From assembly GCF_014842995.1 (NCBI RefSeq), contig NZ_JACYXL010000007.1, forward strand, positions 62,001-126,000: a stretch of DNA of 64,000 nucleotides. The letters run 5' to 3'. The position numbers and the translations under genes are program-made. Origin of the DNA: Rhodanobacter sp. 7MK24 (GTDB lineage Bacteria; Pseudomonadota; Gammaproteobacteria; Xanthomonadales; Rhodanobacteraceae). Below, piece by piece: positions 1 through 20,027 of this stretch. The notes beneath the pieces were generated by a model. It had not been told where the DNA came from and did not search any database. It saw only the letters and a program-made list of their open reading frames with translations. Position 1 is the stretch's first letter. Each line of letters starts with the position of its first letter.

Positions 1-1781
1 TTGCCGTCACGGCACCGATCGTTGTCATGGCGTTGGCAAGCGTGGCACTGGTGTGGTGGCTGGATCTTGCGCTGCGTTGGACCTTCGAACCCGCGTTGCT
101 CTGGCGCAACGCTCTGCCGGTTTTCCTGGTCATGTTGCTGATCTACGGCCTGAGCGGCCGTGCGCTGATGGCACTCTTGCTGGGCGGCGGCATCGCGCGT
201 CTCGTGTTCGAGGTGAATGCGATCAAGGAGCTCAATTTGGACGAGCCCCTGCTGCCTGGCGATCTGGTGCTTTGGCATCAGGTGCTGCACAACATGGGTT
301 TCTTCGCGCATTACACCGGTCACCGTCTCGTGCTGTTGTTGCTGGCGCTGTTGGCGGCCATGGCAGTGTTGTGGGCGATCTGGCGATTGGAGGGACGTTG
401 GCGGCGGCCGCACTGGGTGGCTCGTGCGTCGTGGATGGTGCTGTCGCTGCTGCTCCTCGGCACCTTGTACCGTGGCATCGGTCCCTGGCGCGAGGCATAT
501 GCGGACGAGGCATTGCCCGATTTTCAGCTCTGGGATCCGATCGACAGCGTGCAGCATGTCGGTTTCATGGCCGGTCTGGTGCGGATGTCGCAGGAGGCGG
601 ACACGACGATACCGAAGGCTGACGAGTCGCTCGTGCGCGATTTCGCCGCACGTCACGTTGCGGACCTGAAGGCACGCATGACGCGCCAGCCGCCTGCCGA
701 TTTGCCGGACATCGTGGTGGTGCAGAGCGAGGCGTTCTTCGATCCCGGTGTCCTGAAGGACATCGACTACGGCGTGTTCGTGCCCAATTTCGAGCGGCTG
801 GCGGCCACGGGTATTACCGGCAGCCTGACCACTCCCACCTACGGCGGAGGGACCATCCGTACCGAGTTCGAGACTTTGACCGGTTACCCGATGCAGGCGT
901 TTCCGTCCGTCGTGTATCCATATTACGGGCTGGTAGGCGGATGGATGCCGGCGGTGCCGCGAAGGTTGGCGGCTCTCGGCTATTCGACCACGCTGTACCA
1001 CCCGTTTAGTGGCAGTTTCTGGAATCGTCGGCAGACGATGCCCGAATTGGGGTTCCAGCATGCCTATTATCGACAGGCCTTCGCTGGCGCCGAGCGCGCC
1101 GGAGAGTACATCTCTGATCGGGCCTTGTTCGATTACGTGCTGGCCCATCTCGACGACGGCGGCTCCGGACCGCACTACGCGATGGCAATCACGATGGAGA
1201 ACCACGGTCCGTGGGATTTCGACGTGGGCATGCTGGCCAACGTGCTGGGCCGGCGCCCGCTGCCCAAGGGCCTGTCGGCGGCAGGCACCGAGGAGATGGT
1301 TTACTACCTCTCCCATCTGGTCAACGGTGATGACGCGCTCGGTGATTTCGCGAAGCGCTTGCTCGCGCGACCACGTTGGACCGTGCTGATGTTCTATGGC
1401 GATCACCTGCCCGCACTTCCGAGCGCGTTTGCGGATTTGCACTTTGACGATGACGGCTTGGAAGTCCAGGAGCACACCCGTTACATGCTGGTGTCGAATC
1501 GGCCACTGGCGCCGCGCAAGCTGGATCTCAGTTCGTACGATCTGCCGGCCCTGCTGTTCGATACGATAGGGCTGCCCGAGGACGGCTACCTTGCGTTCGA
1601 TTCGGTTGCCAGGCAGGCCTGGGCGCAGGATCGCTACCAGAATGGTGCCAAGTATGGGCAGGTGCTGTTCAATGCAGCACAGCTGGAGGTGAGCTGCCGG
1701 CGCAAGTTGGATGTTGCGGGAGAGTGCGGTAATACCTCACCCCGAGATCAGCCACAACCCGATGCCGCGGGGAAAGAATGA
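1..1781 (+). CDS. LTA synthase/OpgB-like phosphoglycerol transferase (sulfatase fold), 5' end outside window
   Basis: The reading frame is open from the window edge and the first ATG is at 27, so the true start probably lies upstream. The N-terminal 150 residues (counted from 27) contain several hydrophobic segments, then an extracytoplasmic alkaline-phosphatase/sulfatase domain. Seen in it: Q-S-E-A-F near residue 233-237 (first metal ligand E235), G-G-G-T-I-R at 273-278 with T276 in the position of the LtaS nucleophile, a N-H-G-P segment, and Y-G-D-H-L-P near residue 454 supplying metal ligands. Enzymes of this family move phosphoglycerol or related groups onto periplasmic glucans, teichoic acids or lipopolysaccharide. 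In a Gram-negative glycan locus the acceptor is probably an LPS, O-antigen or glucan sugar, but that is inference. Confidence 0.8.
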   Translation, partial: AVTAPIVVMALASVALVWWLDLALRWTFEPALLWRNALPVFLVMLLIYGLSGRALMALLLGGGIARLVFEVNAIKELNLDEPLLPGDLVLWHQVLHNMGFFAHYTGHRLVLLLLALLAAMAVLWAIWRLEGRWRRPHWVARASWMVLSLLLLGTLYRGIGPWREAYADEALPDFQLWDPIDSVQHVGFMAGLVRMSQEADTTIPKADESLVRDFAARHVADLKARMTRQPPADLPDIVVVQSEAFFDPGVLKDIDYGVFVPNFERLAATGITGSLTTPTYGGGTIRTEFETLTGYPMQAFPSVVYPYYGLVGGWMPAVPRRLAALGYSTTLYHPFSGSFWNRRQTMPELGFQHAYYRQAFAGAERAGEYISDRALFDYVLAHLDDGGSGPHYAMAITMENHGPWDFDVGMLANVLGRRPLPKGLSAAGTEEMVYYLSHLVNGDDALGDFAKRLLARPRWTVLMFYGDHLPALPSAFADLHFDDDGLEVQEHTRYMLVSNRPLAPRKLDLSSYDLPALLFDTIGLPEDGYLAFDSVARQAWAQDRYQNGAKYGQVLFNAAQLEVSCRRKLDVAGECGNTSPRDQPQPDAAGKE

Positions 1782-2341
1782 TTCTTGCGATACGGACGAC
1801 GGGCGGGACTGCCATCACCGCCTGTCAGGGGATGGGCTCCTGACTGCTCGGGTGGCGACGTTGTGTATGGCGGCCGCGTGGCGATATTGCGCGCTATGCC
1901 AAGCGTAATCGGGCGGGCGCCGTTGCTGAGCCGATCGCTGCCGCCGACGGTCCAAGTGTGGGAGATGATGGCGAATGCGATGTAGCTTGCGGAGCCCGCT
2001 GGACGAAGATGTGCGCGGGCAATGGACTTGTGCTGTACGTCGGCCGGGTTGGCGTGTTGCAGCTCGCCGCCAGCACGGGTGTTCGTCTACGGGAGACATT
2101 GATCCATCGCAACAGTGACACGCCCGTCCGATTCGGATAGGCGTGGCACAATGCGTGGCTTTCGAGCACGTTCGACAAACGAATGAGCGCATCAATGAAT
2201 CTATTACGGACCTATCCGGGTGCATCGGGAAATGCGGGTATGAACAACCTTGCCGGTGCACCTCAAGCTGCCGTTGGTGGCTGAGGGATGCATGCTGCTG
2301 CGTGCGATCGGAACTCCCTTGTGCCCGTCTGTTAGGTGTCG
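1782..2341. other. 560-bp intergenic region, no gene recognised
   Basis: Between the phosphoglycerol transferase and the GT4 gene. Short frames on both strands have Arg/Pro-rich compositions typical of antisense reading of GC-rich DNA and no recognisable domain. No strong hairpin followed by a T-run and no convincing promoter pair was seen. The length suggests a separate promoter for the GT4 gene or decayed DNA. Confidence 0.4.
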
Positions 2342-3643
2342 ATGATGCGCATCCTGCTGATTGCCTACGACTACCCGCCACTCGCGTCGCCGCAGGCGAT
2401 CCGCTGGCATTACCTCACGCGCGAACTGGTCGCATTGGGCGTCGACGTACATGTACTCGCACCTCAGCTGCCAGTTTCCTGCACCGCGCTGGCAGTGCCG
2501 CCGGGCGTGACAGTTCATCGCTGTGCCGCGGGTGGCCTTGCCGGTTTGCTTGAGCGTCGCCGCAGGCGTTCGTCGAGCGCGGTCGCGAGGCCTTTGACGC
2601 CCGCTAATGCGGAAGTCGTTGCACCGTCGACTCCGTCGCTGAACTGGAAAGGACGTCTATACCAGCGGCTGGATGTGTTGATCGGCCTGTGGTGTTATCC
2701 CGACAGCCGCGGGCAATGGCGCAAGCCGGCGCGAGCAGCTCTGTCGTCGCTCATGGCGCAGCTCCGACCGGACATTGTGATCAGTTCGCACGAGCCGGCA
2801 GTGAGTCTCGAACTCGGCATCGATGCGGCCAACAGCACTGCCGCCTGGCTTGCGGATCTGGGCGACCCGGTTCTGGCACCCTACACACCTAGGCGTTGGC
2901 GTCGGCGCGCAGGCCGACTGGAGGCGCAGGTTTGCGTCAAGGCCGCAGCGGTCAGCGTAACGACGGCGCAGACGCGTGAATTGCTGATCGCACGTCACGG
3001 CATCGACCCCGACAAGGTATCCGTGCTGACTCAGGGTTTTGACGAACGTGCTGCGCGCGGCGCCTGGAATCCAGATCCCGACAGTTTTGCGCGCGACGGC
3101 GAATGGCACCTGCTTTACACGGGGCGGTTCTATCCGTTTCGCAGCCCGCTGGCGTTGCTGGAAGCAGTACTGGCGCAGCCGCGCGTGCGGCTGACAGTGG
3201 CGGCGCCCGAAGTGGCGCCGGAATGCCTTGCTCTGGCAGATCGCAGCGGTGGCCGCATCGTCTTTCTTGGCGAGCAGCCGCACGCGCGGGTACTCGAACT
3301 GCAGCAGCAATGCGACGTGCTGGTGAATATCGGCAATGCGCTGGCCGCACAGACGCCGGGCAAGCTGTTCGAATACCTCGGCAGCGGCAAGCCGATACTG
3401 CACTGCCATTCGGTCGACGACGACCCGGCCAATGCGTTGATTCGCAGCTGGGGACGCGGCTGGGTGTGCCGCAACGACCGTGCCAGCCTGCAGGCGTTCC
3501 TGGGGACACTTGTTGAATCACCGGAGCAACGGTGCGCGGAGCTGTCGCGTGACGATAGCGGCATTGCGGAGTATGGATGGTCAGTGTTGGCACGCCGGCT
3601 GCTGCAGCGCTGTGAGCAGGTGGTCAAGGAGAAGGTGCGATGA
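2342..3643 (+). CDS. glycosyltransferase family 4 (GT-B fold)
   Basis: 433 residues from the ATG at 2342. A GTG six bases upstream is also in frame, but the protein begins naturally as M-M-R-I-L-L-I-A-Y-D-Y-P-P, the usual first beta strand and glycine/proline loop of GT4 enzymes. A basic patch and spacer follow. The C-terminal Rossmann half carries a Y-T-G-R-F-Y-P-F donor-site segment and the conserved F-E-Y-L-G-S-G-K-P motif with the Glu that binds the nucleotide-sugar ribose. There is no signal peptide, so it acts at the cytoplasmic face on a lipid-linked glycan. The stop codon overlaps the start of the next gene (ATGA), so the two are translationally coupled. Donor and acceptor sugars cannot be told from the sequence. 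Confidence 0.8.
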   Translation: MMRILLIAYDYPPLASPQAIRWHYLTRELVALGVDVHVLAPQLPVSCTALAVPPGVTVHRCAAGGLAGLLERRRRRSSSAVARPLTPANAEVVAPSTPSLNWKGRLYQRLDVLIGLWCYPDSRGQWRKPARAALSSLMAQLRPDIVISSHEPAVSLELGIDAANSTAAWLADLGDPVLAPYTPRRWRRRAGRLEAQVCVKAAAVSVTTAQTRELLIARHGIDPDKVSVLTQGFDERAARGAWNPDPDSFARDGEWHLLYTGRFYPFRSPLALLEAVLAQPRVRLTVAAPEVAPECLALADRSGGRIVFLGEQPHARVLELQQQCDVLVNIGNALAAQTPGKLFEYLGSGKPILHCHSVDDDPANALIRSWGRGWVCRNDRASLQAFLGTLVESPEQRCAELSRDDSGIAEYGWSVLARRLLQRCEQVVKEKVR

Positions 3644-5166
3644 CGAGCGGGCTGCAATTTGTTCCAGAACGAGTTCGGCAGCACCTGATCCACGCTTTTG
3701 CGTGGGTCGCGGCCTGTGCAGCGTTGTTCAATGCGTGCCTGTTCGTGTGGCTTACAGCCAACCCTGTACTGCGTTCCGATGAGTGGTATTCGCTGGACAT
3801 CTTCGTGCGCAAGGCAGTTGCAGGCCAGCTTGGTGCCATCGATTTCTTCACCAGACGCTATGCCGCCGATCACGCGCAACCATTGAACAAACTGGTAATG
3901 CTGATCGAATGGCGCTGGTTTGGCCTTGATTCCTCCGTGGGTGCGGTGATCGGCGTCATGGCCGCTACCGCGTGCGCGGTGATCCTGCATCGGGTCGTGC
4001 TGCCGACGCAACAACGCGAGCAGCGGGGTGTTGCGCGCCGCTGTCTGGCCTGGGCCGTCATCTGCGCACTGTTGTTTTCACTCAACGCCAGCGTCATCTG
4101 GACATGGCCGCTGGCGACCCTCGGCTACCTTGCCGTCTTGCCGATACTATTGTTCCTGCTGGCAACGTGGCAGGCGTGGCAACATCGGCGATATCTGACG
4201 GTGGCGCTGGCGACCCTGCTACTTGGTGTGGTCGCGGATGACAGCGCCGTGATCACCGTGGTTGCCACGCTGGTGGCCCTGCTTCTGTTCGCGTTCCGTG
4301 AGCCGACGTCGTCGCGTGCTGCCCTGTGGAAGACGACGCTGGTGATTCTTGCCTGCATGGTTCTCGTGCGGATCGGTTACTCCTTGGTTCCCTTGCTGGA
4401 CAACAGCATGCCCAACCCGTCGTTGTCCGCTCGCCTGACCGCGTTGTACGGGCAATTGCGAGCTGGCGGGGCGTGGCAATGGCTTACCACCCCGCTGGCA
4501 TTGTCGGTGGCGCACGACAACCCCTTCCACGGCTTGTCGACGACGGGGTGGAACAAGCTGCAGATGGTCGTAGCCGTGGGCCTGCTCGCCGCGCATGCGG
4601 TGTTCTGGCGGCGCGCTCTGCTTGGCGGATACAGCAAGCTGACGTTTATCGCAGTGTGCCTGATGCTGCTTTCATATGGCTGGCTGGCGGCCATTCTTGT
4701 TGTTCGCGTGTCGTATTTCGGCAGCGATTATCTTGCCCAGGATCGTTATGTCGAGTTCTACCAATTCAACCTGATCGCGCTGCTGCTGATGTGGGCGGAT
4801 ACGTCGCCGCTTGCCGATCGTGGTGCATCGTGGCGCAACTGGCTCACGGGGCATCTTCCCGCAACGGCCTGCGGACTGTTGCTGTTGCTGCAGATTCCAT
4901 TGGCGCAGGCTGCCTGGCAGCAGCGGCGCTACGTCCTTCCCTATTACGGCCAGATGGCGACCCAGATCGAGCAGATGTCGGCGGACCCGGCCCGTACGGA
5001 GGGCTGCCTGCCGCTGCTGGTGGTTTGTCAGTGGCCGCTCGAGCGCCGGCGCGCTGCGCTGGAGCTATTGCGCGACCAGCGCCTGAACGTGTTCTCGTCG
5101 CGCGTGCAGGCCCAGCATCGGTTCCTGCCACGCTGGCCAGTCAATGCCGAAGGACGCGCGCAATGA
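3640..5166 (+). CDS. polytopic membrane protein of a polysaccharide locus, function unknown
   Basis: 508 residues, starting four bases inside the preceding GT4 gene. About ten hydrophobic segments are spread over the length. An early non-membrane stretch around residues 44-85 contains L-R-S-D-E-W-Y-S and H-A-Q-P, reminiscent of the acidic first loop of GT-C glycosyltransferases and O-antigen membrane glucosyltransferases. I do not recognise a named family. A lipid-phosphosugar-dependent transferase or polymerase-like role is plausible from topology and from the coupling to the GT4 gene. The C-terminal 90 residues are soluble and include two cysteines near residues 452 and 460. Confidence 0.6.
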   Translation: MTSGLQFVPERVRQHLIHAFAWVAACAALFNACLFVWLTANPVLRSDEWYSLDIFVRKAVAGQLGAIDFFTRRYAADHAQPLNKLVMLIEWRWFGLDSSVGAVIGVMAATACAVILHRVVLPTQQREQRGVARRCLAWAVICALLFSLNASVIWTWPLATLGYLAVLPILLFLLATWQAWQHRRYLTVALATLLLGVVADDSAVITVVATLVALLLFAFREPTSSRAALWKTTLVILACMVLVRIGYSLVPLLDNSMPNPSLSARLTALYGQLRAGGAWQWLTTPLALSVAHDNPFHGLSTTGWNKLQMVVAVGLLAAHAVFWRRALLGGYSKLTFIAVCLMLLSYGWLAAILVVRVSYFGSDYLAQDRYVEFYQFNLIALLLMWADTSPLADRGASWRNWLTGHLPATACGLLLLLQIPLAQAAWQQRRYVLPYYGQMATQIEQMSADPARTEGCLPLLVVCQWPLERRRAALELLRDQRLNVFSSRVQAQHRFLPRWPVNAEGRAQ

Positions 5167-5440
5167 TGGAATGGGCGCGTCGTAGGACTGCGAAACAATC
5201 TGGTCGGTGTGCAGTCCGTACTGCTTGGCGAAGTGCTGAATCGTGGTTTCGCGGCCCGGGTCCGGGATGCCCCTATCGGGCCAGCGAACTGCCAGGGTCG
5301 TTCGATGCAAAAAATGGCATCTGCGCTCTGTAGCTATCTGCAAACGAACCAGAGGCAGCTCGAATCGCACCGTGAGCTATCCCGAACTGCAGGTCTACAC
5401 CCCGGAACCGTGGACGGGATAGGACATGTCGTTCTTGCGT

Positions 5441-6349
5441 CTATTTTTGTTCACTGTGTGGAGACCGCAAAAGGAATAGCAGGCAGATGAATCCCGCCAG
5501 TGCAATCAAGGGTGTGAGCAAACGCAACGCAATGGCGACAGCTTCTGCATCGGAGGCGGAAGCTCCAAGCCAGAGCATGATGCCGCGGCTGCCGAGTTCC
5601 GACACGCCCAGGCCGGCGGGCGTCATGCTGGCGACCACGGCCAGCATGACACCGCCCAGCAGCAGGCAGACCTCGCTGAAATCTATGTGCACGTTGATGG
5701 CGGCTACGGCGAGCCACCAGAGGCCGGCGTAGAGCAGCCAGATGATCACTGTCAGCAGGCTGGCACGAACGATCCGCTCGCGATGTCGCAATACTTCCAC
5801 GTACGGCTGCAGCCGCTGGGGCAGGTGGTGCAGATAAACGGCCAGTATGCTGAGCAGTAGCCCCGCCAGCAGCGGCAGAAACAGTGCCAACGGAGCCAGC
5901 CACGCGAACCCGAAGTGCCAGGCTCCGCCGCTCAGGCCCATGCCGACTACGCCGCCGAAATCGAGTACCCGTTCGACGAAGAATGCGGAAACGCCCAGCC
6001 GCCATGCGCCCGCGTGATGGTCCGGAATCAGGCGGATTTTGATGACCTCACCCAGTTGGAACGGAGTGAGCGAGGCGAGCCCCGAAGCGGCGCCGTTCGC
6101 GCACAGCGAATGCCAGAAACGGCGACGATCGGGTTCTACCCCCAGCACGAATAGCCAACGCAGGCCGCGCACCGAGAAGATCGCGAGCAGCAGGGGCACG
6201 GCGCCTGCCAGCAGCAGACCTAAGCGCAGGCGCCCAAGTGCGCGTGCCACCATGTGCCAATCGAACAACCGGATGGTTGCCACTATGCAGATCGCTGCGA
6301 TCAGCAGCACCAGCAGATGGCGCCAGCGGCGGCGGATCAGCGCACGCAT
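5441..6349 (-). CDS. UPF0104 / lysylphosphatidylglycerol synthase-type transmembrane protein (flippase-like domain)
   Basis: 302 residues from the ATG at 6349 (M-R-A-L-I-R-R-R-W-R), which gives the expected positively charged start before the first helix. An upstream in-frame ATG at 6391 would add 14 residues. About eight transmembrane segments fill the protein, with the family's F-Q-L-G-E-V-I-K and T-P-A-G-L-G-V-S-E signatures. The family covers the membrane half of MprF and the AglD-type proteins that accompany glycosyltransferases and are thought to flip lipid-linked substrates or lipids. It is the last gene of the minus-strand glycan operon, downstream of the aminotransferase. Confidence 0.8.
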   Translation of the reverse strand: MRALIRRRWRHLLVLLIAAICIVATIRLFDWHMVARALGRLRLGLLLAGAVPLLLAIFSVRGLRWLFVLGVEPDRRRFWHSLCANGAASGLASLTPFQLGEVIKIRLIPDHHAGAWRLGVSAFFVERVLDFGGVVGMGLSGGAWHFGFAWLAPLALFLPLLAGLLLSILAVYLHHLPQRLQPYVEVLRHRERIVRASLLTVIIWLLYAGLWWLAVAAINVHIDFSEVCLLLGGVMLAVVASMTPAGLGVSELGSRGIMLWLGASASDAEAVAIALRLLTPLIALAGFICLLFLLRSPHSEQK

Positions 6350-6443
6350 GGTTGGTCGGTGCGGTGGTTGGCGGGGCACGGCAATGCCCACCGGCGATCA
6401 GCGGTGGCGGCCGTCGAGGGGTGGTGAGCGGCGTACATGTGTC

Positions 6444-7577
6444 TCAGGCTTGCTCCAGCACGCGCTGCGCGACCTGCATGACGTGTTCCTGTTGGCTTTC
6501 TAGTCCGATCCATAGCGGAAGGCGCACCAGGCCATCGCTGGCGACATCGGTGTGCGCCAATGCTCCGGACATGCGCCCGTGGCGCTGGCCGGCGGGCGAG
6601 CTGTGCAACGGGATGTAATGGAACACTGTGCCGATGCCGGCAGCCTTCATCGCCTCGATGAAATGCGTGCGTGCTTCCAGTCCATGCAGCAGCAGGAAAT
6701 ACATGTGCGCGTTGTGCGTGCATTCCGAGGGGACGACCGGTCGGCGCAGCAGGGCGGCCGCTTCCAGCGGAGCCGCCCAGGCATGGTAACGGTTCCAGAT
6801 CGCCAATCGCCGGCTGGTGATGTGGTCGGCTTCCTCCAACTGGGCGGCCAGGAATGCCGCGATCAGCTCGCTGGGCAGGTAGGACGAGCCGAGGTCGACC
6901 CAGGTGTATTTGTCGACTTGGCCGCGGAAGAATCGGCTGCGATTGGTACCTTTTTCGCGAATGACCTCCGCGCGTTCGACCAAGGCCGGGTCGTTGATCA
7001 GCAACGCGCCGCCTTCGCCCGAGATCACGTTCTTGGTCTCGTGAAAGCTCAGCGCGGCCAAGTCACCGATGCTGCCGAGTGGGCGGCCCTTGTACAGCGA
7101 AAGTATGGCCTGTGCGGCGTCCTCGACCACGCGCAAGCCGTGGCGCGTCGCGATCGCCATGATGGTGTCCATCTCGCAGGCGACGCCGGCGTAATGCACC
7201 ACGCAGATGGCGCGTGTGCGTGGGGTGATCGCCTGTTCGATCAGCATCTCGTCGATATTCAACGTATCGGGCCGGATGTCCACGAACACCGGCACGGCAC
7301 CCCGCAGCACGAAGGCATTCGCTGTCGAGACAAAGGTGAACGAAGGCATGATCACTTCGTCGCCCGGCCGCAGGTCGAGCAGGATGGCGGCCATCTCCAG
7401 GGCCGCCGTACAGGAATGGGTGAGCAGCGCTTTGCGCGTTCCAGTGCGCCGTTCCAGCCAGGAGTGACAGGCGCGCGTGAACGAGCCATCCCCGGACAGC
7501 TGCCCCATGGCGTGCGCCTGGGCGATGTTGTCGAGCTCGCGGCCGACCAGATAGGGGCGGTTGAATGGAATGATCAT
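6444..7577 (-). CDS. wecE: dTDP-4-amino-4,6-dideoxygalactose transaminase (WecE/RffA type)
   Basis: 377 residues, the normal length of the DegT/DnrJ/EryC1/StrS aminotransferases. Seen: the N-terminal I-P-F-N-R-P substrate motif, P-S-F-T-F-V-S-T-A-N, the pyridoxal-phosphate aspartate in V-E-D-A-A-Q (D153), and the Schiff-base lysine K182 in S-F-H-E-T-K-N. The S-F-H-E-T-K-N form and the P-L-H-S-S-P-A-G-Q segment are those of WecE. The reaction known for the family is PLP- and glutamate-dependent amination of dTDP-4-keto-6-deoxyglucose to dTDP-Fuc4N. Its neighbours (WbqC-like, ATP-grasp/HAD, methyltransferase) suggest the 4-amino group is decorated further. No rmlA/rmlB is in the window, so the dTDP-sugar precursor must come from elsewhere. 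Confidence 0.9.
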   Translation of the reverse strand: MIIPFNRPYLVGRELDNIAQAHAMGQLSGDGSFTRACHSWLERRTGTRKALLTHSCTAALEMAAILLDLRPGDEVIMPSFTFVSTANAFVLRGAVPVFVDIRPDTLNIDEMLIEQAITPRTRAICVVHYAGVACEMDTIMAIATRHGLRVVEDAAQAILSLYKGRPLGSIGDLAALSFHETKNVISGEGGALLINDPALVERAEVIREKGTNRSRFFRGQVDKYTWVDLGSSYLPSELIAAFLAAQLEEADHITSRRLAIWNRYHAWAAPLEAAALLRRPVVPSECTHNAHMYFLLLHGLEARTHFIEAMKAAGIGTVFHYIPLHSSPAGQRHGRMSGALAHTDVASDGLVRLPLWIGLESQQEHVMQVAQRVLEQA

Positions 7578-7620
7578 ACGAACGTTCGGCGCGTGGACAC
7601 ACGATAGGATAGTCAGGGGA

Positions 7621-8367
7621 TCAGGGATACGATGGTGTCCCTGTCGGGTGGCGGTCGCTGTTCATGGCCTTGCATCGATGACCCCAGATGTATTCAGGCG
7701 CTTGCGGGCCTACGTTGAAAATCAGGTCGAGCACGCTCACGGTGTGTTCGAACGGCGGGTAAAGCTGGGGGTATTCTGGGTAATCCGAGTAGTCCTTGAG
7801 TTGCAAGCCAATGCCCAATGTCGCGAATTTCCGTGGTTCCAGGTAATCGGCAGCCAGCGGGCCTGACAGATAACTGGTGGCGCCGCTGAGTCGCAGCAGG
7901 TCGATGATCCGATCGAGCTTTGCACCTTGCGCCACATAATTGCGCGAGTCAGTGAAAACGGTGCGGATACCAAGCAGTTCGCGGGCAATGCGTTGCGTCA
8001 TCAACTGATTCATCGTCGAGAGACTGGCCCATATCTGTCCAAGATAAAGTTCCTCGAAGAAGGGGGCGTATTGCCGGAAGAACGGTGCGCGCGAGTAGCT
8101 GTGGCAAAGGGTCTTCCAGTGTTTCTCCTGCCAGGAAGGATCGTCCAGCGCTACCTCGGAAATGAGGCGGCTGCGATTTGCGCCTGCAGGAACGGTCAAC
8201 CAATGGGTACCGCCCGCTGTCTTGATACGGTTCCTGCTGCGCCAATCGCGTGTCGTGAACTGGACGTCATCGAGAAAGATGAATTCGTCCACGTCGTGGA
8301 TGATGTCGAAATATCCCTTCCACGGGATATACGACGACTGGATGATCGCGACTTTGTGTCCGTTCAT
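7621..8367 (-). CDS. WbqC-like family protein
   Basis: 248 residues. It opens with V-A-I-I-Q-S-S-Y-I-P-W-K-G-Y-F-D, the signature of the WbqC-like family found in O-antigen and capsule clusters. F-L-D-D-V-Q-F and a W-R-S-R-N-R-I-K segment follow, and the C-terminal part has S-Y-L-S-G and Y-P-Q-L-Y-P-P-F, also typical. The family is associated with amino-sugar biosynthesis loci, often next to WecE-type aminotransferases; its exact chemistry is not something I can state. The start overlaps the stop of the upstream ATP-grasp/HAD gene (ATGA), which couples the two products. Confidence 0.8.
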   Translation of the reverse strand: MNGHKVAIIQSSYIPWKGYFDIIHDVDEFIFLDDVQFTTRDWRSRNRIKTAGGTHWLTVPAGANRSRLISEVALDDPSWQEKHWKTLCHSYSRAPFFRQYAPFFEELYLGQIWASLSTMNQLMTQRIARELLGIRTVFTDSRNYVAQGAKLDRIIDLLRLSGATSYLSGPLAADYLEPRKFATLGIGLQLKDYSDYPEYPQLYPPFEHTVSVLDLIFNVGPQAPEYIWGHRCKAMNSDRHPTGTPSYP

Positions 8368-10013
8368 TGGCTCAGGCAGGCATGGCGGGCCGAAAGCAAG
8401 CTGTCGACGACATCGATGCGGCGGCTGATCGCGCCGGGGACGGTTGCCGCGAGGGCTTCATTGGAACTCAGGAGCGTACCGTTCCTGCGGATGATCAAGG
8501 CGTGCATGTAACCTGCGCGAATCGCGCCGACGCCATCGCGGAAGTAGTTGTCGCCGATCATCACCAGTTGGGCAGGGTCCACGCCCAGCGCATGCGCTGC
8601 TTGCAGGAACGCTGCGGCAGCGGGCTTCTCCCCGCCATGCTCGCGGCTGCAGACCACGGCGTCGATGCAGCCGAGCGCCGGCGCTTGGCGTATCTTGACG
8701 CGCTGTGTCGCGGGAGGATTGTCGGTAAGGATGGCCAGGGGCAGGCCAGCGGTCTTCAGGGCACTGAGTGTCGCCTCGACGTCGCTGAACAGAGGTGTCT
8801 CGGCAACGATCGCCGCTCGATAGGCATCCATCGCCGTGGTGCGCAGGCTTTCCGGCAGCGCCAGTAGCGCCAGCAGTCGATCGATCAGGAATGCGCGTTC
8901 GCCTTCATCGATCAATTGCCCCGCGCACAGCAGGAAGGCGGATCGTTCCACCCATGCGGAAAAGACGTCGGCATAGATGAGCTGTAGCTTTTCGAGCATC
9001 CACTCCTTGTGCTTGACCAGGGTATCGTCCAGATCGAAGACGATGCCCCTGGGGGCGGGATGCAGCAGCGGCACGACGACATCTTCGAGCACACGTACGG
9101 TCTTGACGGCTCTGCGTGCGGACAAGTCTGGAACCGCTGCGGTCGTGCAGGCTCCCATGAAGAATCCTGGCAGATTGATGCCCTCGGCGAGCGCATGCGT
9201 GGCGGACGTTCCGGTGCGCGGGTTGACGTCGGAAACGAAAGCTATGCCGTCCGGCGGCGCGACTACCTGGATGTTGTAGATGCCGCAGCCGCCTGCCGCG
9301 GCGATGGCTGCTGCCGTCCGTTGCGCGATTGCGGCGATGTGTGGATCGTGCACCGATGTGGAGATGACGGCGAAGCCGCCCGATGTCCGCAGCCGCCGAC
9401 GCAGCACGACCGGCGAGGTGTGACCGTGTGGATCGATCGCGAAGTCGGCCGAGTACTCCTCGAAGTCAGATAGCCACGTCGACCATACATGGGCGGCGAA
9501 GTCGCCCTGGTGCGCAAGCGCTTCCTCGCGGCTGCGCAGGAGCACGGTGCCGCGGCCGCCCCAGCCTTCGCGCGGCCTGCCGAACAGGGGCTGAGCATAG
9601 TCGTGGGCAAGCGGATCCAGCAGCGCCGGTACCGGCAAGCCTGCATTGTCGAGAAAATGATGGGTGCGCAGTTTGTCCAGCAGCGTCGTGGTCAGTTCTT
9701 CGCCGGCCACGGCCACAACGACACCCAGGTCGACCAGCGGGTTCCTGAGGCGCGCAAGCGTGAGCAGCTCATACGCGGTCGCCGGGAAAATGGCGTCCAC
9801 GTGCTCGTGCCGCGCCAGGTCGAGCAGGAATGTCTCAAATGCCTGCTCATCCGCCAGCGGCGGTGCCACGAAACATTCCCCGCAGACATAACGTACGAGG
9901 TGTTCGGAGTGGATGTCGCAAACCAGCACCCTGGTGCGATCCAGTCGCTGCAGGGCGCGCACGATGCCCAGCCCTTGAAAGCCGCCCGCGCTGACGACGA
10001 GCGCGGTTTTCAT
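8364..10013 (-). CDS. ATP-grasp ligase fused to a HAD-superfamily hydrolase
   Basis: 549 residues in two domains. Residues 1-300 are a carbamoyl-phosphate-synthase-like ATP-grasp protein: a Rossmann-like start (A-L-V-V-S-A-G-G-F-Q-G-L-G), a glycine-rich loop at 150-157, and the metal-binding D-V-N-P-R-T-G at 262-268. Residues 320-520 are a HAD phosphatase-like domain with all four motifs: D-L-D-D-T at 327-331 (nucleophile D327, acid D329), T430, K463 in G-E-K-P, and G-D-N at 487-489. ATP-grasp enzymes join a carboxylate to an amine or thiol through an acyl phosphate. Beside a 4-amino-sugar transaminase it could acylate the amino group, while the HAD part could remove a phosphate. Both roles are inference. 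It overlaps its neighbours by four bases at both ends. Confidence 0.8.
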   Translation of the reverse strand: MKTALVVSAGGFQGLGIVRALQRLDRTRVLVCDIHSEHLVRYVCGECFVAPPLADEQAFETFLLDLARHEHVDAIFPATAYELLTLARLRNPLVDLGVVVAVAGEELTTTLLDKLRTHHFLDNAGLPVPALLDPLAHDYAQPLFGRPREGWGGRGTVLLRSREEALAHQGDFAAHVWSTWLSDFEEYSADFAIDPHGHTSPVVLRRRLRTSGGFAVISTSVHDPHIAAIAQRTAAAIAAAGGCGIYNIQVVAPPDGIAFVSDVNPRTGTSATHALAEGINLPGFFMGACTTAAVPDLSARRAVKTVRVLEDVVVPLLHPAPRGIVFDLDDTLVKHKEWMLEKLQLIYADVFSAWVERSAFLLCAGQLIDEGERAFLIDRLLALLALPESLRTTAMDAYRAAIVAETPLFSDVEATLSALKTAGLPLAILTDNPPATQRVKIRQAPALGCIDAVVCSREHGGEKPAAAAFLQAAHALGVDPAQLVMIGDNYFRDGVGAIRAGYMHALIIRRNGTLLSSNEALAATVPGAISRRIDVVDSLLSARHACLSQ

Positions 10014-10747
10014 GCAGGCTGCGCGGTCAGCAGGATGCCATTGCAGATATCAGGCAACTCGTAACCGACGTCGATGAGCGCGTTCTCGATACCGGGGGCG
10101 AGCGACAGCTGCTGCTGTTGCGACGTGGTCAGCGGCTTGAGCACCAGCCCCACCTTGTCCAGTATGACGTAGCCGGAGTCTTCTACCAGACGGCTGATCG
10201 AGCTGCTGTCGAAATACCGCTTGTGGCCAAGTTCCAGGTCGTACTGGCTCAAGGCGTACAGGTCCGCCAGGAGACCTGCGGAGTGACCCAGCAGGCGGTG
10301 CAGCGAGCGAGCGTTGGGTACGGCTGCGAACAGGACGCCGGCAGGTTTCAGAAAGGTCCGGAAGCGGCGCAGGATCAGGCCCGGATCGTCGACATGCTCC
10401 AGCACGAACCCCATCTCGATGGCGTCGAATGGCTGATCGAAATGCGCTTGTTCGAAATAGGTGTGATGAATCGAAACATGTGCCGGTGGTGACGTCTCGG
10501 CCTGGTAGCGGGCGATGATGTCCGCGGATCCCTCAAGAATGTGGTACTCCGTCACGTCGAGTCGATCGCGGATCGCCTGGCTGACACGCTGCCCGCCGAT
10601 GCCAAGGCTTAGTACCCGCAACCTTCGTTGGTCTTGCAGTCGTTCGAAGATCTTGCCCGCGTAAGCGGCCAGCAAGGCCTCTTCATCCCTGTGATAGGGA
10701 AATTGCTCGGTATAGGCGCCCTGGTAGGCGTTGAGATCTTCTTGCAT
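10010..10747 (-). CDS. class I SAM-dependent methyltransferase
   Basis: 245 residues. A Rossmann methyltransferase core is visible: motif I V-L-S-L-G-I-G-G-Q at about 44-52, the acidic end of strand 2 in H-I-L-E-G, post-motif I F-D-A-I-E-M-G-F-V-L-E-H-V-D-D at about 107-121, and L-K-P-A-G-V-L-F-A-A-V-P-N typical of UbiE/COQ5-like small-molecule methyltransferases. The sequence D-L-E-L-G-H-K-R-Y-F-D resembles sugar methyltransferases. It is second in the glycan operon and its stop overlaps the start of the ATP-grasp/HAD gene. O- or N-methylation of the sugar or of an attached acyl group is the likely role; substrate unknown. Confidence 0.8.
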   Translation of the reverse strand: MQEDLNAYQGAYTEQFPYHRDEEALLAAYAGKIFERLQDQRRLRVLSLGIGGQRVSQAIRDRLDVTEYHILEGSADIIARYQAETSPPAHVSIHHTYFEQAHFDQPFDAIEMGFVLEHVDDPGLILRRFRTFLKPAGVLFAAVPNARSLHRLLGHSAGLLADLYALSQYDLELGHKRYFDSSSISRLVEDSGYVILDKVGLVLKPLTTSQQQQLSLAPGIENALIDVGYELPDICNGILLTAQPA

Positions 10748-10756
10748 CCGGCAGCC

Positions 10757-11728
10757 TCAATCGTGAAATTCGCGAACAATGAACAAGGGACGGTTCTGCG
10801 TCTGGGTGTAGATGCGCGAGATATACAGACCGATCACGCCGAGCACCGTGATGATAATGCCGGACATGCCGATGATGACCAGCATCAGCGAGGTGAAGCC
10901 GGTCAGCACCGCTTCGGGGTGGAGCAGTTTCCGGATGACCAGGGCGATGCCGGCAACACCGGCGCACAGCGTGATGCCGAGGCCGCCGGCGAGAACCATC
11001 TTCAGCGGAACCGTGGAGAACGAGGTTACCGCTTCCATCAGCAACGCGAATCGCTTGCGCAGGGAGTAGGTCGAGGCATTCTCCCGTTGCGTCTTCTCGA
11101 CGACAATCGCCACCTGGTGGAAGCCCGACCAGTACATCATGCCGCCGAGGAACACATTGCGATCACCCAGCGACAGCAGCGCATCGACATAGCGGCGCGT
11201 CATCAGCCGCTCGCTGAGCACATTGGCGGGAACCTGGGTGTCGCTCAGTCGATTGAACAGGCGCCAGAACACTGCGCCGCCGACACGTTCCACCCATGCG
11301 CCCTTGCGCTTGGCCTGGATGCCATAGACGACATCCGCGCCGGCTCCGCGCAGCGTCTCCAGGAAATGCGGCAACACGCCCGGTCGCACCTCCAGGTCGC
11401 AATCGATGATGAACAGCAGGTTGCCCCTGGCATGGGCCAGGCCCGCCATCACCGCCTTGTGATGGCCGAAGTTGCGCGACAGATCCACGATCTTTATCGC
11501 GGCATTCGTGCTGCGCGCGCGGATGAGATGCTGCAGCGATTCATCGGGCGAGCCATCGTTGACGAAGACCAGCTCGTAACGCCCGATGCCAGCTGCGCCG
11601 ATGGCGGCGGTCATCTCATCGATGAAGCGGGTAATGAATTGTTCGGAGCGGTAGACGGACGTGACGATGCTCAGCTGCGGTGCCGGCACCGTAGATTCCC
11701 GAAGTGGTGTGATGCCGGGCGTCAGCAT
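10757..11728 (-). CDS. glycosyltransferase family 2 with two C-terminal membrane helices (GtrB/ArnC-like)
   Basis: 323 residues from the ATG at 11728; an in-frame ATG at 11788 would add 20 residues without family resemblance. The GT-A domain shows L-S-I-V-T-S-V-Y-R-S, F-V-N-D-G-S-P-D-E-S, L-S-R-N-F-G-H-H-K-A and the D-C-D-L-E metal motif. Two hydrophobic segments near the C-terminus match the polyprenyl-phosphate glycosyltransferase layout of GtrB, ArnC and DPM synthase. Such enzymes load a sugar from a nucleotide donor onto undecaprenyl phosphate. It is the first gene of the six-gene operon, separated by nine bases from the methyltransferase. It probably loads the modified sugar made by its neighbours for transfer on the periplasmic side. 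Confidence 0.85.
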   Translation of the reverse strand: MLTPGITPLRESTVPAPQLSIVTSVYRSEQFITRFIDEMTAAIGAAGIGRYELVFVNDGSPDESLQHLIRARSTNAAIKIVDLSRNFGHHKAVMAGLAHARGNLLFIIDCDLEVRPGVLPHFLETLRGAGADVVYGIQAKRKGAWVERVGGAVFWRLFNRLSDTQVPANVLSERLMTRRYVDALLSLGDRNVFLGGMMYWSGFHQVAIVVEKTQRENASTYSLRKRFALLMEAVTSFSTVPLKMVLAGGLGITLCAGVAGIALVIRKLLHPEAVLTGFTSLMLVIIGMSGIIITVLGVIGLYISRIYTQTQNRPLFIVREFHD

Positions 11729-11888
11729 GATGCCGAATTCCTGCGGGATGAGGGCGTCGTGAAGTGCGGTAGCTCGCCTAGAGCACACCCAGAAGCGATG
11801 GCGCAGCGATCCGGAGGCGGCTGGTTGTTGCTTGGTCGGCAGGGTACGCCGGATGACACGGAGCAGGCGTGCTCACGTCATGACCGGT

Positions 11889-12833
11889 TCAACCCAGAGC
11901 TTGTTCCAGTTCCGGGATCAGCTTGAACAGATCTCCAACCAGACCAAAATCGGCCACCTCGAAGATGGGCGCTTCACCATCCTTGTTGATTGCTACGATG
12001 GTGCCGGCGTCCTTGATGCCAGTGAGGTGCTGGATGGCACCGGAGATGCCTATGGCCATGTACAGCTCGGGGGCGATGATCTTGCCGGTCTGACCCACCT
12101 GCAGGTCGCTGGGTACGTAGCCGGCGTCCACCGCGGCGCGCGAGGCACCCACTGCAGCGCCGAGCTTGTCGGCGAGCTTGAAGATGATGTCGAAGTTTTC
12201 CTTCGAGCCCACGCCGCGGCCGCCGGAGACCACCTTGCTGGCGCTTTGCAGGTCGGGGCGATCGCTCTTGCCCGACTGCAGGCCGACGTAGCGGGTGTGG
12301 GCGGGCAGGGTTATGTCCAACGTTATCGCTTCGATCGGTGCGTTGTTCGTGCCCGTCGCGGCAGCCGGCCACGACGCAGTGCGGATGGTGGCGACCACGG
12401 GATGCGACGGTTCGGCTTCGACGGTGACGATGGCGTTGCCTGCGTAGATCGGCCGCTTGAAAGTATGTGCGCCTTCCACGCTCATCACATCACTGACCTG
12501 GGCTACGCCGAGTAAAGCGGCAACGCTCGGTGTCACGTCCTTGCCGAAAGTGGTGGAGGGCGCGAACACATGGCTGTAGCCTGCGGCAGCCTTGGCGATC
12601 TGCGGCGCCAGCACGGCGGCCAGCGGGTGCGCATTCTCGGCGCGCTCGACGGTGAGCACGCGGCTCACGCCGTCGATCTTGGCGGCCTCGGCGGCGAGCG
12701 CGGCGACGTTGTCGGCCAGCACCAGCACATCGACGGCTTCGGGTTTCACTGCGGCAGCGGCGCTCACGGCGCGGGCGGTGGAGGAGTTCAGCTTGCCGTC
12801 CAGATGTTCGGCGATGACGAGAATCTTGCTCAT
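11889..12833 (-). CDS. etfA: electron transfer flavoprotein alpha subunit (EtfA/FixB)
   Basis: 314 residues, the full length of the family. The C-terminal FAD domain is intact: [42 protein letters not shown] and A-I-N-K-D. With EtfB it forms the heterodimer that takes electrons from acyl-CoA and other dehydrogenases and passes them to ETF-ubiquinone oxidoreductase, also encoded in this window (22169-23788). It lies downstream of etfB on the same strand, with a REP-like element in the 97-bp gap. Confidence 0.97.
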
Positions 12834-13949: not shown

Positions 13950-15995
13950 CTAGTAGCCGTTTGCTTGAATCTGCGCACCAGCAGGCAACGTTACGGGAGC
14001 TCCCGCAGCATTGTTCAGACGATAACCCTGGAAGTCTGTCCCGTTGCTTTGCCAGTCATATGCATCACCCGCTGTGTCGATCCACAAGATATCGGCCATG
14101 CCGTCGCCATTGAAATCGGCGATCGTCGCAATCTGGTAACCCGGCGCAATCGAGCGAGTACCCCGCGCAGTGACCGTGTCGCCATTCATCAGCCACCATC
14201 CGAGCTGGTAGGTGGTGCCGTTGGTGAACAGCAGATCACTCTTGCCATCGCCGTTGACATCGCCCGCGCCCTGCAAGACCCAACCCGCCGGGAAATTGCC
14301 CACAAAGTGATGAGCGAAGTGTCCGGTGCCGTCATTGATCCAAGTGTACAGATCGTTGTTGGGGCCGGTAAACACGAAGTCCACGAAGCCATCGCCATTG
14401 AGGTCGGCGAGCGTCAGCTTGTAACCTGCGGCGGTTGGCAGCAGCGCGGAATAGCTCACCGACACCTGGGAGCTGTCCGACGTGAAGGTCAATTCCCACC
14501 AAGCCACCTGACCCGTCGACTCATTGCTCCAGATCAAGGCATTCTTGCCAGAGGCGTCCACCTTGCCGGCACCCACCAGCGTCCAGCCGGCTGGATAGGG
14601 GGTGCCCACTTTGTAGGCAGTATGACCGCCGCTGCCGTTGTTCAGCCAGACATACAGCTGGCGGGTCGTCGGGTTGGTAAACGCGAGGTCGGTGATACTA
14701 TCGTTGTTCAAGTCGACCATTGCGCCAATCGTGTAGCCCGCGGCAATCGTCTGCGTTTGCGATTGCACGACAGTCGCGCCGTTCACACCCAACTGAGTCA
14801 TTGTGCCGGTTGTTGGGTTGATATAGGTGATGGTGGCTATGGCTGCGGGCGGGGCTGTGCCCACAATCGGGTGTGATATTTCACATTCGTTGGTGTCATT
14901 CGACCAGATACTTTGCATGGCATAGCTGCCATTGCCCATGACCACGTTCGCGAGGGCACCCTGGCCACTGGTGATCCAGGCGCATTCATCAGCAGACTCG
15001 CCGCCATTGGTTGAGGCGTTGTTCGAGTTGAACCAGCCATAGTCCGGAATCTGGTCGGTAAGGGTCTCCGCGTACTCGTGGCCCTCGACGATGGAAAAGC
15101 CGTCCAGGCTGCCCTGCGGGGAATTGCCGTTGACGAAGCCTTGCCCGCAGTTCATGTCATTGACGTAGGGCATGTTCGTGTATGCGACGAAACCACCATA
15201 GGAGGCCCAGGCGTCGCTGTGCCAAGCGCAAAAATTGCCGCTGGGAGTATTGAATCCATCCGGATGGGTGCCCGTTGGCGACAGGATTACGTACTGTGCG
15301 TAACGGTTGGACGCCGCTGTCGTGTTGCCAAAATGCTGCGCGGCGTTGAGCGCTTCCTGTCCGAGCTGGTCCTGGGTCGCCTGCTGCGGTGCGGCAGCCG
15401 AGTTGTCATACCAGATGCCGGCGAATGCCGCGCCGCCGGTCGGATAGCTGATTTGTGCGGCACCGGAAGGGCAGAATGTCGCGCCAGTCGAGACCATCGG
15501 ACCATCACAATACTGGGTCATGGTGCCTGACCACAGTTCGCCCCCGGTGCCCAGGCCCTTGAACATGCTCTCCAGGTACGGCACCGCACCGAACGCGTCG
15601 CCGGACAGATGCGTATTGCCGTTGCCGTCGGTGCTGGCGGTACCCCATTGGCTGCCGTAGACAACCAGGTAGACCCTCGAGATGCTGCTGGTGACACCGA
15701 TACCGTCGTAGCCGCCACCGTAACTGAGCGTATTCGGACCGGTGGTGGCTGCCGTGGACATGTGCAGCGCCCGGTATTGCATCATCTGGCTGTAAGCGTC
15801 GCGGGTTGGTACGGCACCGTGGCGATACGGATGGCCGTAGGCCGGCGCATACGGATTGCCCGTTGGGTGCGCTGCCGTGTTGTCTGTTTTGTTGCTGCTG
15901 CCGTCGTCGTTGCCGGCGAGGGCAGTGCCGGCAAGCAGGCCCAGCAACGCTGTCGCGACGGTTATCAGGATTCTGCGATTCGTGTGGTGATTCAT
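13950..15995 (-). CDS. secreted putative metallopeptidase with C-terminal FG-GAP/VCBS repeats
   Basis: 681 residues from the ATG at 15995, chosen because an A-A-A-G-G-A-G Shine-Dalgarno sequence lies just upstream and the start opens a good signal peptide (hydrophobic core 9-24, cleavage near A-L-A-G at 26-28). Residues 90-400 form a domain I cannot name. It contains G-H-E-Y-A-E-T-L-T-D at 305-314 (His306, Glu307, Glu310) and a later G-E-S-A-D-E-C-A-W with Glu333. The H-E-x-x-E pattern plus downstream acidic residue suggests a zinc site, as in exordium-like bacterial proteins carrying a comparable H-E...E..T-D motif. Residues 440-681 are FG-GAP repeats (D-L-N-G-D-G-F, D-V-N-G-D-G-K, D-F-N-G-D-G-M) giving Ca-binding beta-propeller blades. 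The same module ends the neighbouring sedolisin. Confidence 0.75.
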   Translation of the reverse strand: MNHHTNRRILITVATALLGLLAGTALAGNDDGSSNKTDNTAAHPTGNPYAPAYGHPYRHGAVPTRDAYSQMMQYRALHMSTAATTGPNTLSYGGGYDGIGVTSSISRVYLVVYGSQWGTASTDGNGNTHLSGDAFGAVPYLESMFKGLGTGGELWSGTMTQYCDGPMVSTGATFCPSGAAQISYPTGGAAFAGIWYDNSAAAPQQATQDQLGQEALNAAQHFGNTTAASNRYAQYVILSPTGTHPDGFNTPSGNFCAWHSDAWASYGGFVAYTNMPYVNDMNCGQGFVNGNSPQGSLDGFSIVEGHEYAETLTDQIPDYGWFNSNNASTNGGESADECAWITSGQGALANVVMGNGSYAMQSIWSNDTNECEISHPIVGTAPPAAIATITYINPTTGTMTQLGVNGATVVQSQTQTIAAGYTIGAMVDLNNDSITDLAFTNPTTRQLYVWLNNGSGGHTAYKVGTPYPAGWTLVGAGKVDASGKNALIWSNESTGQVAWWELTFTSDSSQVSVSYSALLPTAAGYKLTLADLNGDGFVDFVFTGPNNDLYTWINDGTGHFAHHFVGNFPAGWVLQGAGDVNGDGKSDLLFTNGTTYQLGWWLMNGDTVTARGTRSIAPGYQIATIADFNGDGMADILWIDTAGDAYDWQSNGTDFQGYRLNNAAGAPVTLPAGAQIQANGY

Positions 15996-16304
15996 TTTAT
16001 TGACTCCTTTCAAAGAGACATTGGGCCAGCCGGTGTGGCGGGCCGTGCCCATACCGGATGCGCTGAGCGCGTGACTGGTCCGGCGGTTCCTGACCTCGCG
16101 GCTATTGCTACACCACATGAAGCCGTATTGGGCGTTGCGTTTCAGCGCCGGCTTTGCCGCGTGTTGGCATTCATGCAGGCGCGGCAACGCATGTCACGCG
16201 CGGCATGGGAAGGGGCTGTACCTGATGGCCCGGCTCTACAAGGGCTAACAGAACAGGCCGGCAGAAGTCCGGCCTGTTCATTTCAGTGCCGACAGCAAGC
16301 CAGA
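15996..16304. other. 309-bp spacer between the two FG-GAP enzymes
   Basis: Holds the Shine-Dalgarno and leader of the 13950-15995 gene and the terminator-like hairpin of the sedolisin gene (separate entry). No further gene or clear sigma-70 promoter was seen. Confidence 0.5.
16251..16279 (-). terminator. strong hairpin downstream of the sedolisin gene
   Basis: A perfect 11-bp stem (16251-16261 with 16269-16279) with a 7-base loop, 26 bases past the stop of the S53 peptidase gene. No T-run follows on the minus strand, so it may act as a 3'-protecting hairpin or weak terminator. It separates the two FG-GAP genes, which therefore need not share a transcript. Confidence 0.6.
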
Positions 16305-19580: not shown

Positions 19581-20027
19581 GGATTTCCCCTGAGCTAAAG
19601 ACCAAGTGTGCATGGCCTGATCGCCGCACCCGGTTCGGGTATTCAGCGGCGACTCGTTCCATGGAGTTTCGCCTTCCGAATAAATGCATTCACCCGGAAT
19701 GGGCAGAGACCATAGTGAGGTTCCAAATACGCTGTCAAACGATTTTTATGGAACGGCTGCTACGCATCTTGAAGTGGGTGGGTGATCCGTTTCAGGTGGC
19801 AATATATTGCGATTTCAGCAATGTGAAACGCCGGGAATCGTATTAAATTACGTCACATGCTCCGGTTGCGGTAAAGTCGCAAATTTGCAGCCTGCCAAGC
19901 AGACAAGTTGCCTATTTCAGCCAAAGCGCCAGGTCTGCCGGTACTTATGACGCATGCAGCAACCCGAGCCCTGCATGACGAACAGATATGTGCGACGCAG
20001 CTACGGTCGAAGCCGGGATCGGTGTAA
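19581..20027. other. 447-bp intergenic region, AT-richer than surroundings
   Basis: Contains the promoter and leader of the sedolisin gene. The part from about 19700 to 19870 is clearly AT-richer than the flanks. A 61-codon plus-strand frame at 19661 lacks a ribosome site and any recognisable feature, and I do not call it. No terminator was seen for the GT2-GT4 gene, which ends at 20028. Confidence 0.5.
19709..19738 (-). promoter_or_regulatory. sigma-70 type promoter for the sedolisin gene
   Basis: On the minus strand a consensus TTGACA (19733-19738) is followed after 18 bases by TATGGT (19709-19714). It lies 129 bases upstream of the start codon, leaving a long untranslated leader. Confidence 0.55.

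What the first reader, a model, noticed from the sequence alone, without database searches (positions are those of the whole stretch)
8364..10013. ATP-grasp ligase and HAD phosphatase fused in one chain
Both halves keep their catalytic residues (N-P-R-T-G metal site; D327, D329, T430, K463, D488). ATP-grasp chemistry makes an acyl phosphate from a carboxylate. A HAD domain on the same chain could hydrolyse a phosphorylated product or intermediate, or act as a proofreading phosphatase. I do not know this pairing as a characterised enzyme.
Basis: partly seen in the sequence, partly recalled or inferred. Interest (0 to 1): 0.55.

Follow-up and report, generated by a model that had tools for sequence, protein, structure and literature searches.

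The report
ATP-grasp ligase fused to HAD phosphatase
A soil-bacterium gene in a surface-sugar cluster encodes one protein that joins an amide-forming ligase to a phosphatase, probably to attach a phosphorylated building block to an amino sugar and then strip off the phosphate.

Summary
The gene is on the minus strand at 8364-10013 (549 aa). Residues 1-315 form an ATP-grasp carboxylate-amine-ligase-like fold (best solved match 2pn1, Z 28.7; PylC, Z 25.5). Residues 322-549 form a HAD phosphatase with a helical cap. Active-site residues of both halves are kept in nearly all of 27 relatives. The fusion is a conserved gene, not an assembly accident: relatives occur in Rhodanobacter, Dyella, Frateuria, Luteimonas and Burkholderiales. 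In Clostridia, Actinomycetota and Myxococcota the halves are adjacent separate genes; in Lachnospiraceae they are fused again, apparently independently. The gene sits in a tightly packed operon: polyprenyl-phosphate-type GT2, methyltransferase, fusion, WbqC, WecE (dTDP-Fuc4N transaminase), flippase-like gene, inside the metB-etfA LPS locus of xanthomonads. Best explanation: a bifunctional enzyme that N-acylates an amino sugar with a phosphorylated acid, then removes the phosphate; the fused counterpart of the separate ligase and HAD phosphatase characterised in the Campylobacter capsule. Step order and substrate are inferred, not shown. New variant of a known kind, moderate interest. By-product: WbqC, always present with the proteobacterial fusion, is predicted to resemble the bacillithiol amino-sugar ligase BshC.

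The parts
9069..10013 (-). ATP-grasp half of the fusion, residues 1-315 (metal-site residues Q249, D262, N264; K114; R266)
   Evidence: fold Z 28.7 to 2pn1 and 25.5 to PylC; profile match to CPS with Q/E/N aligned; conservation
8364..9050 (-). HAD phosphatase half, residues 322-549 plus stop (D327, D329, T430, K463, D488; helical cap about 335-400)
   Evidence: PF00702 E 2.6e-22; fold Z 22.7 to 3qnm over 319-547; conservation
10757..11788 (-). GT2 glycosyltransferase of the ArnC/PgfS polyprenyl-phosphate type
   Evidence: PF00535; NCBIfam PgfS E 6e-54 and PRK10714 (ArnC) E 1e-36, both below cut-off; present in 14 of 16 related loci
10010..10747 (-). SAM methyltransferase, 4-bp overlap with the fusion
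   Evidence: PF13489; overlap; present in 14 of 16 related loci
7621..8367 (-). WbqC family protein, 4-bp overlap with the fusion; predicted BshC-like fold
   Evidence: PF08889 E 2e-71; 16 of 16 related loci; BshC 4wbd Z 14.7
6444..7577 (-). WecE, dTDP-4-amino-4,6-dideoxygalactose transaminase
   Evidence: TIGR02379 607.8 bits vs cut-off 434.85 and PRK11706.1 606.5 vs 375
5441..6391 (-). flippase-like membrane protein (LPG_synthase_TM / TIGR00374)
   Evidence: PF03706 E 2.8e-29; TIGR00374 49.2 vs 43.2
3640..5166 (+). multi-span membrane protein, convergent with the operon; candidate GT-C transferase (guess)
   Evidence: 8 hydrophobic stretches by a simple hydropathy count; no Pfam match
11889..12833 (-). 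EtfA, boundary marker of the metB-etfA LPS locus
   Evidence: PF01012 and PF00766

Best explanation
The protein is a bifunctional amide ligase and phosphatase that decorates an amino sugar for a surface polysaccharide. Proposed order: (1) WecE makes dTDP-Fuc4N; (2) the ATP-grasp domain activates the carboxylate of a small phosphorylated acid (for example 3-phosphoglycerate or a phospho-amino acid) as an acyl phosphate and joins it to the sugar amine; (3) the HAD domain removes the phosphate ester from the product, making the step irreversible and releasing the finished N-acyl sugar; (4) the methyltransferase and WbqC modify it further, GT2 moves it to undecaprenyl phosphate, and the flippase carries it across the membrane for addition to LPS. 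Shown here: the two folds (predicted), the conserved active sites, the operon, the sugar transaminase by family model, the LPS locus, and the repeated pairing of the two domains. Inferred: the reactions, their order, the phosphorylated acid and the sugar acceptor.
For: Fold and active sites of both halves. Of the 48 loci returned by one scan of genome contigs, 19 carry a full-length fusion, 7 carry ATP-grasp and HAD as adjacent genes in the same order, 1 is cut by a contig end, 1 is frame-broken and 20 match the HAD half only. Five Lachnospiraceae/Clostridiales fusions nest among the split pairs, and one origin of fusion is weakly rejected (AU p 0.03), so fusion probably happened twice. Operon with 4-bp overlaps. 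The window's WecE passes its cut-offs; 11 of 11 transaminases scanned match WecE models at E 1e-100 or better; WecE lies in 12 of 16 proteobacterial loci, against about 1% chance per 6 kb from the genome's DegT density. Two of five HAD-less ATP-grasp relatives in the same order also follow a DegT transaminase, tying the ATP-grasp half to amino sugars. Precedent for ligate-then-dephosphorylate: Cj1438C and Cj1435, repeated for HS:19.
Against: No substrate was identified and nothing was assayed. The Campylobacter ligase is a TupA-like ATP-grasp acting on a sugar carboxylate with a phospho-amine, so it is an analogue, not shown to be a close homologue. WecE is absent from the held sequence of 3 of 16 loci and a contig ends in a fourth. 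Standalone ATP-grasp relatives without a detected HAD neighbour exist (5 of 5 checked), so the phosphatase is not needed for every member. WbqC is also a candidate amide ligase, so the ATP-grasp domain may not act on the sugar amine itself.
Confidence: 0.45

Rival explanations
1. The HAD domain works first: it dephosphorylates a metabolite such as 3-phosphoglycerate to the free acid and hands it to the ATP-grasp domain, which ligates the unphosphorylated acid to the amino sugar.
For: Same domains and neighbours. Neisseria PglB2 is proposed to give a glyceramide sugar (PMC6959607, passages). The nearest solved sequence relatives of the HAD half include N-acylneuraminate-9-phosphatase, which acts on a small sugar phosphate (E 1e-11).
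Against: A free-acid route needs no fusion or adjacency; the ligase would run with any source of acid. The Campylobacter precedent runs the other way.
Confidence: 0.25
2. Campylobacter direction: the ATP-grasp half activates a carboxylate on a sugar (uronic acid) and joins a phosphorylated amine such as serinol- or ethanolamine-phosphate; HAD then removes the phosphate.
For: Exactly this chemistry is proved for Cj1438C and Cj1435.
Against: The operon carries an amino-sugar transaminase; no uronate-forming or phospho-amine gene was seen among the neighbours tested. No TupA-type model in the Pfam listing.
Confidence: 0.1
3. Two enzymes of the same pathway that share a chain only for co-expression: HAD acts on an unrelated sugar phosphate or as a housekeeping or repair phosphatase.
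For: HAD phosphatases are often promiscuous (recalled); five ATP-grasp relatives have no detected HAD neighbour.
Against: Pairing recurs in Pseudomonadota, Bacillota, Actinomycetota and Myxococcota with different glycan partners, and fusion seems to have happened twice.
Confidence: 0.15
4. The fusion is an assembly or frame error.
For: One relative (L033) has the two halves in different frames.
Against: Intact in 19 loci of one scan and in 14 of 233 family genomes, one of these cut at its start by a contig end.
Confidence: 0.01

Closest known systems
Campylobacter jejuni Cj1438 C-terminal amidoligase with HAD phosphatase Cj1435 (HS:2), HS19.11C and HS19.09 (HS:19)
   Same: ATP-grasp-type amide ligase paired with a HAD phosphatase in a surface-polysaccharide cluster; phosphorylated building block, phosphate removed after ligation (passages of PMC11800397, PMC11800379, PMC13276843)
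   Different: Separate proteins; TupA-like ATP-grasp fused to a GT2, not to HAD; acts on a uronic acid with a phospho-amine; here an amino-sugar transaminase is next door
PylC and 2pn1-type (PRK12767, 'carbamoyl phosphate synthase-like') ATP-grasp ligases
   Same: Fold and metal-site residues
   Different: No HAD domain; the window protein scores 96.5 against the PRK12767.1-4 cut-off of 390
Neisseria PglB2 (glyceramido sugar)
   Same: Proposed to put a glycerol-type acyl group on the 4-amino sugar of a bacillosamine-like pathway (PMC6959607 passages; that its C-terminal domain is ATP-grasp is recalled); in L044 and L051 a gene of the sugar-transferase cluster (PF02397 in the L051 member) directly precedes split ATP-grasp and HAD genes
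   Different: PglB2 fuses to the sugar transferase; no HAD partner is described in the passages I read
Clostridioides difficile type B flagellin cluster (FdtB, ATP-grasp CDR20291_0245)
   Same: ATP-grasp gene in a cluster with a deoxyamino-sugar transaminase; mutant loses the amide-capped sugar (passages of PMC5207245, PMC5207246)
   Different: No HAD domain mentioned in the passages read; acyl cap is a taurine-containing dipeptide on Fuc3N

Membership tests
ATP-grasp carboxylate-amine ligase superfamily | ATP-grasp fold | tested here: met
   AlphaFold model pLDDT 90.9; 2pn1 Z 28.7, rmsd 2.7, 287 aligned; PylC Z 25.5, rmsd 3.1, 281 aligned
ATP-grasp carboxylate-amine ligase superfamily | Mg-binding Gln/Glu(Asp)/Asn triad (role of the CPS residues recalled) | tested here: met
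   Q249, D262, N264 align with CPS Q, E, N; Q and N in 27 of 27, D in 15 and E in 12
ATP-grasp carboxylate-amine ligase superfamily | Acyl-phosphate formation and amide product | not testable with these tools
   needs assay
NCBIfam PRK12767.1-4 / Pfam PF15632, PF02655 | Curated score cut-off | tested here: not met
   96.5 vs 390; 26.3 vs 29.1 and 21.7 vs 23.2. The split relative in L051 passes PRK12767.1-4 with 406.7
HAD phosphatase superfamily | PF00702 over cut-off and catalytic D-x-D, T/S, K, D | tested here: met
   80.6 vs 26.4; D327, D329, T430, K463, D488
HAD phosphatase superfamily | Phosphatase activity | not testable with these tools
   needs assay
Campylobacter Cj1438C/Cj1435 system | TupA-like ATP-grasp on a GT2 chain with a separate HAD protein | tested here: not met
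   no TupA model in the hmmscan listing at E 0.01; HAD is on the same chain and GT2 is a separate gene
Campylobacter Cj1438C/Cj1435 system | Phosphorylated intermediate removed by HAD | not testable with these tools
   works-like claim only
PglB2 | Bac_transf (PF02397) domain on the same chain | tested here: not met
   not in the hmmscan listing

The most novel reading that the evidence does not exclude
The fusion and WbqC are two successive amide-forming enzymes of one pathway: WbqC is a BshC-like ligase that puts an amino acid on an amino sugar, and the ATP-grasp-HAD enzyme adds a phosphorylated second unit and strips the phosphate, giving a peptide-like cap on a deoxyamino sugar of LPS. This would be a phosphate-tagged route to acyl- or peptidyl-sugars held in one chain, and it would give WbqC a function.
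Probability: 0.18. Interest if true: 0.65.

Novelty: new variant of a known kind. Interest (0 to 1): 0.42.

Why it matters
Phosphate-tagged amide formation was worked out in Campylobacter with separate proteins. A single chain that holds both steps, arisen probably twice by the tree here, would show that the pairing is a general way to decorate bacterial surface sugars. It would also give a direct handle on WbqC, whose function I could not find in print, and predict unusual N-acyl Fuc4N in the LPS of Rhodanobacter, Dyella and relatives.

Tried and rejected
Phage or plasmid origin: no match in phages, one ATP-grasp-only match in plasmids. RNA families and tRNAs in the window: none. Shewanella sfm flagellin cluster as a parallel: ATP-grasp present but with different partners (passages). 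The phylum-wide profile search found only the window's own genome among 398 at E 1e-40, so the gene is rare. Direct measurement of active-site distance was not possible. The VIA-align range 1..548 for 2pn1 might suggest that the tail completes the ATP-grasp half; I take it as a stray residue, because 3qnm covers 319-547. First gene calling picked antisense ORFs and hid WecE in L018 and L025, and missed the fusion gene in L024, L027 and L033; it was replaced by tblastn. WbqC: only weak Foldseek support for BshC (E 0.025); the VIA Z of 14.7 is the main evidence, and no sequence-level test was run.

Rows dropped: from the 48 loci, the tree and residue table use 26 plus the window; left out are 20 HAD-only loci, truncated L025 and broken L033. 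The structure alignment A2 uses the window and 19 fusions. In one search, 16 of 233 genomes matched; 2 of them (L016, L017) match one half only and are not counted as fusions. The co-occurrence test uses the 232 genomes and the 14 fusion genomes. The transaminase scan took the window and 10 of the 12 loci with WecE; L018 and L025 were not in it. ATP-grasp-only relatives: one search listed 12 genomes of 250; 5 of the 7 that lack a long fused frame were looked at with flanks, and two others (G729, G806) were not.

Full report
What is there. The reported span holds one complete gene on the minus strand, 549 aa. Pfam finds HAD at 322-501 with E 2.6e-22, and only sub-threshold ATP-grasp matches in the first half. 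An AlphaFold2 model from a 20-row alignment has mean pLDDT 90.9 and pTM 0.84. Its first 315 residues match the solved ATP-grasp protein 2pn1 (Z 28.7) and PylC, a carboxylate-amine ligase (Z 25.5); residues 319-547 match the HAD protein 3qnm (Z 22.7). A profile of 17 ATP-grasp halves finds 2pn1 at 3e-67 and carbamoyl-phosphate synthetase at 3e-25, with the Gln, Glu/Asp and Asn of the CPS sites aligned to Q249, D262 and N264 (that these bind Mg is recalled).

Both active sites are under selection. In 27 fused or split relatives K114, E186, D190, R205, R207, Q249, N264, R266 and G268 of the ATP-grasp half, and D327, D329, D330, T331, D431, K463 and D493 of the HAD half, do not vary; D488 varies once and T430 is Ser in three. 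R146 of the window protein stands where many relatives carry the 'KP' lysine of the ATP-binding loop; this is the one clear departure near a site (alignment).

It is a conserved gene. In 233 genomes of the same family, 16 match and 14 carry both halves in one frame, one of them cut at its start by a contig end (alignment of 13 sequences). A scan of named genomes gave 48 loci: 19 full fusions, 7 adjacent split pairs, 1 truncated, 1 frame-broken and 20 HAD-only. Named hosts of fusions include Rhodanobacter, Dyella, Frateuria, Oleiagrimonas, Luteimonas, a Burkholderiaceae MAG, a Nitrosospira MAG and Lachnospiraceae. The closest named relative is Rhodanobacter sp. C06, 89% identical.

Fused and split. 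In the tree of ATP-grasp halves, 15 proteobacterial fusions (the window included) form one side of a branch. Five Lachnospiraceae/Clostridiales fusions form another group (support 100/99) nested among split pairs of Clostridia, Actinomycetota and Myxococcota. One origin of fusion is rejected only weakly (AU p 0.03), and the proteobacterial branch is long. A pair found as neighbours in several phyla and fused about twice is a classic sign of a shared task (general knowledge).

The operon. Genes on the minus strand run GT2, methyltransferase, fusion, WbqC, WecE, flippase-like, with a 9-base gap, two 4-base overlaps, then 43 and 52 bases. In 16 proteobacterial loci WbqC is found in 16, and GT2 and methyltransferase in 14 (in the other two the fusion begins at a contig end). 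WecE is found in 12 (three lack it in the held sequence; in one the contig ends), and a short EamA-type membrane protein in 10. In L022 WbqC lies upstream of GT2, and in L030 WecE lies upstream. A further genome of the same order (L094) has the set, with the EamA-type gene in place of the flippase-like one. In the family, WbqC occurs in 29 of 232 genomes; the 14 fusion genomes are all among them, with WbqC beside the fusion by coordinates (hypergeometric P 8e-15; 0.002 when collapsed to genera; relatedness is not fully removed).

The sugar. The transaminase next door passes the curated cut-offs for WecE, and 11 of 11 transaminases scanned match the same models at E 1e-100 or better, so the likely acceptor is the 4-amine of dTDP-Fuc4N. 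The genome has a rmlB over cut-off at C35:46822-47820. Next to it is a MetB-family gene, then an ABC-2 transporter gene of the Wzm type. EtfA closes the operon side. The module therefore lies in a metB-etfA interval, described as the variable LPS locus of xanthomonads (passages of PMC2238763; PMC524487 seen in the listing only). In distant loci the pair sits with PglF-type dehydratases, LegC-like transaminases and PF02397 sugar transferases, or with NeuB and CMP-sugar genes (representatives scanned). DegT-cluster genes are called in 8 of 12 such loci. Five ATP-grasp relatives without a detectable HAD neighbour were checked in the same order; two directly follow a DegT transaminase.

How it most likely works. 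Amide ligases of this fold make an acyl phosphate and pass it to an amine (established for PylC and relatives; recalled). Campylobacter shows why a phosphatase would be needed: its capsule ligase uses a phosphorylated building block and a HAD enzyme removes the phosphate after ligation. Transposed to an amino-sugar operon, the phosphate would be on the acid. Candidates are 3-phosphoglycerate, giving a glyceramide as proposed for PglB2, or a phospho-amino acid. The transposition, the acid and the order of steps are inference. The main rival has the HAD half making the free acid first.

WbqC. Its model (pLDDT 84.5) aligns with BshC, recalled as the enzyme that adds cysteine to an amino sugar in bacillithiol synthesis, at Z 14.7 over 219 residues; the next row is 8.6. 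Foldseek alone is weak (E 0.025). If right, the operon has two amide-forming enzymes, and the cap could be two units long, as in the C. difficile flagellin glycan.

Verdict. It is not a characterised enzyme in anything I could search, but the logic is known, so I call it a new variant of a known kind.

Noticed in passing
7621-8367 (-): WbqC family protein with a predicted fold like BshC (Z 14.7, well above the next row), suggesting an amino-sugar amide ligase; it co-occurs with the fusion in 16 of 16 proteobacterial loci.
   Followed up: partly
window 1-12833 and L080 (C35:44000-63000): The operon lies in a metB-etfA interval, known as the variable LPS locus of xanthomonads, with rmlB, a Wzm-type gene, GTs, a PIG-L deacetylase, a GNAT and a UDP-GlcNAc 2-epimerase on the metB side.
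   Followed up: partly
16308-19613 (-) and 13953-16187 (-): A kumamolisin-type (S53-like) protease with C-terminal FG-GAP repeats, followed by another FG-GAP protein.
   Followed up: no
20031-21998 (-): A GT2 and a GT1-type glycosyltransferase fused in one chain.
   Followed up: no
3-1781 (+): Sulfatase-family (PF00884) protein near the window edge, possibly a phospho-group transferase of the LPS locus (guess).
   Followed up: no
L089 8650-9495 and L092 8902-9762: Standalone ATP-grasp relatives of the same order, without a detected HAD neighbour, directly after a DegT transaminase.
   Followed up: partly
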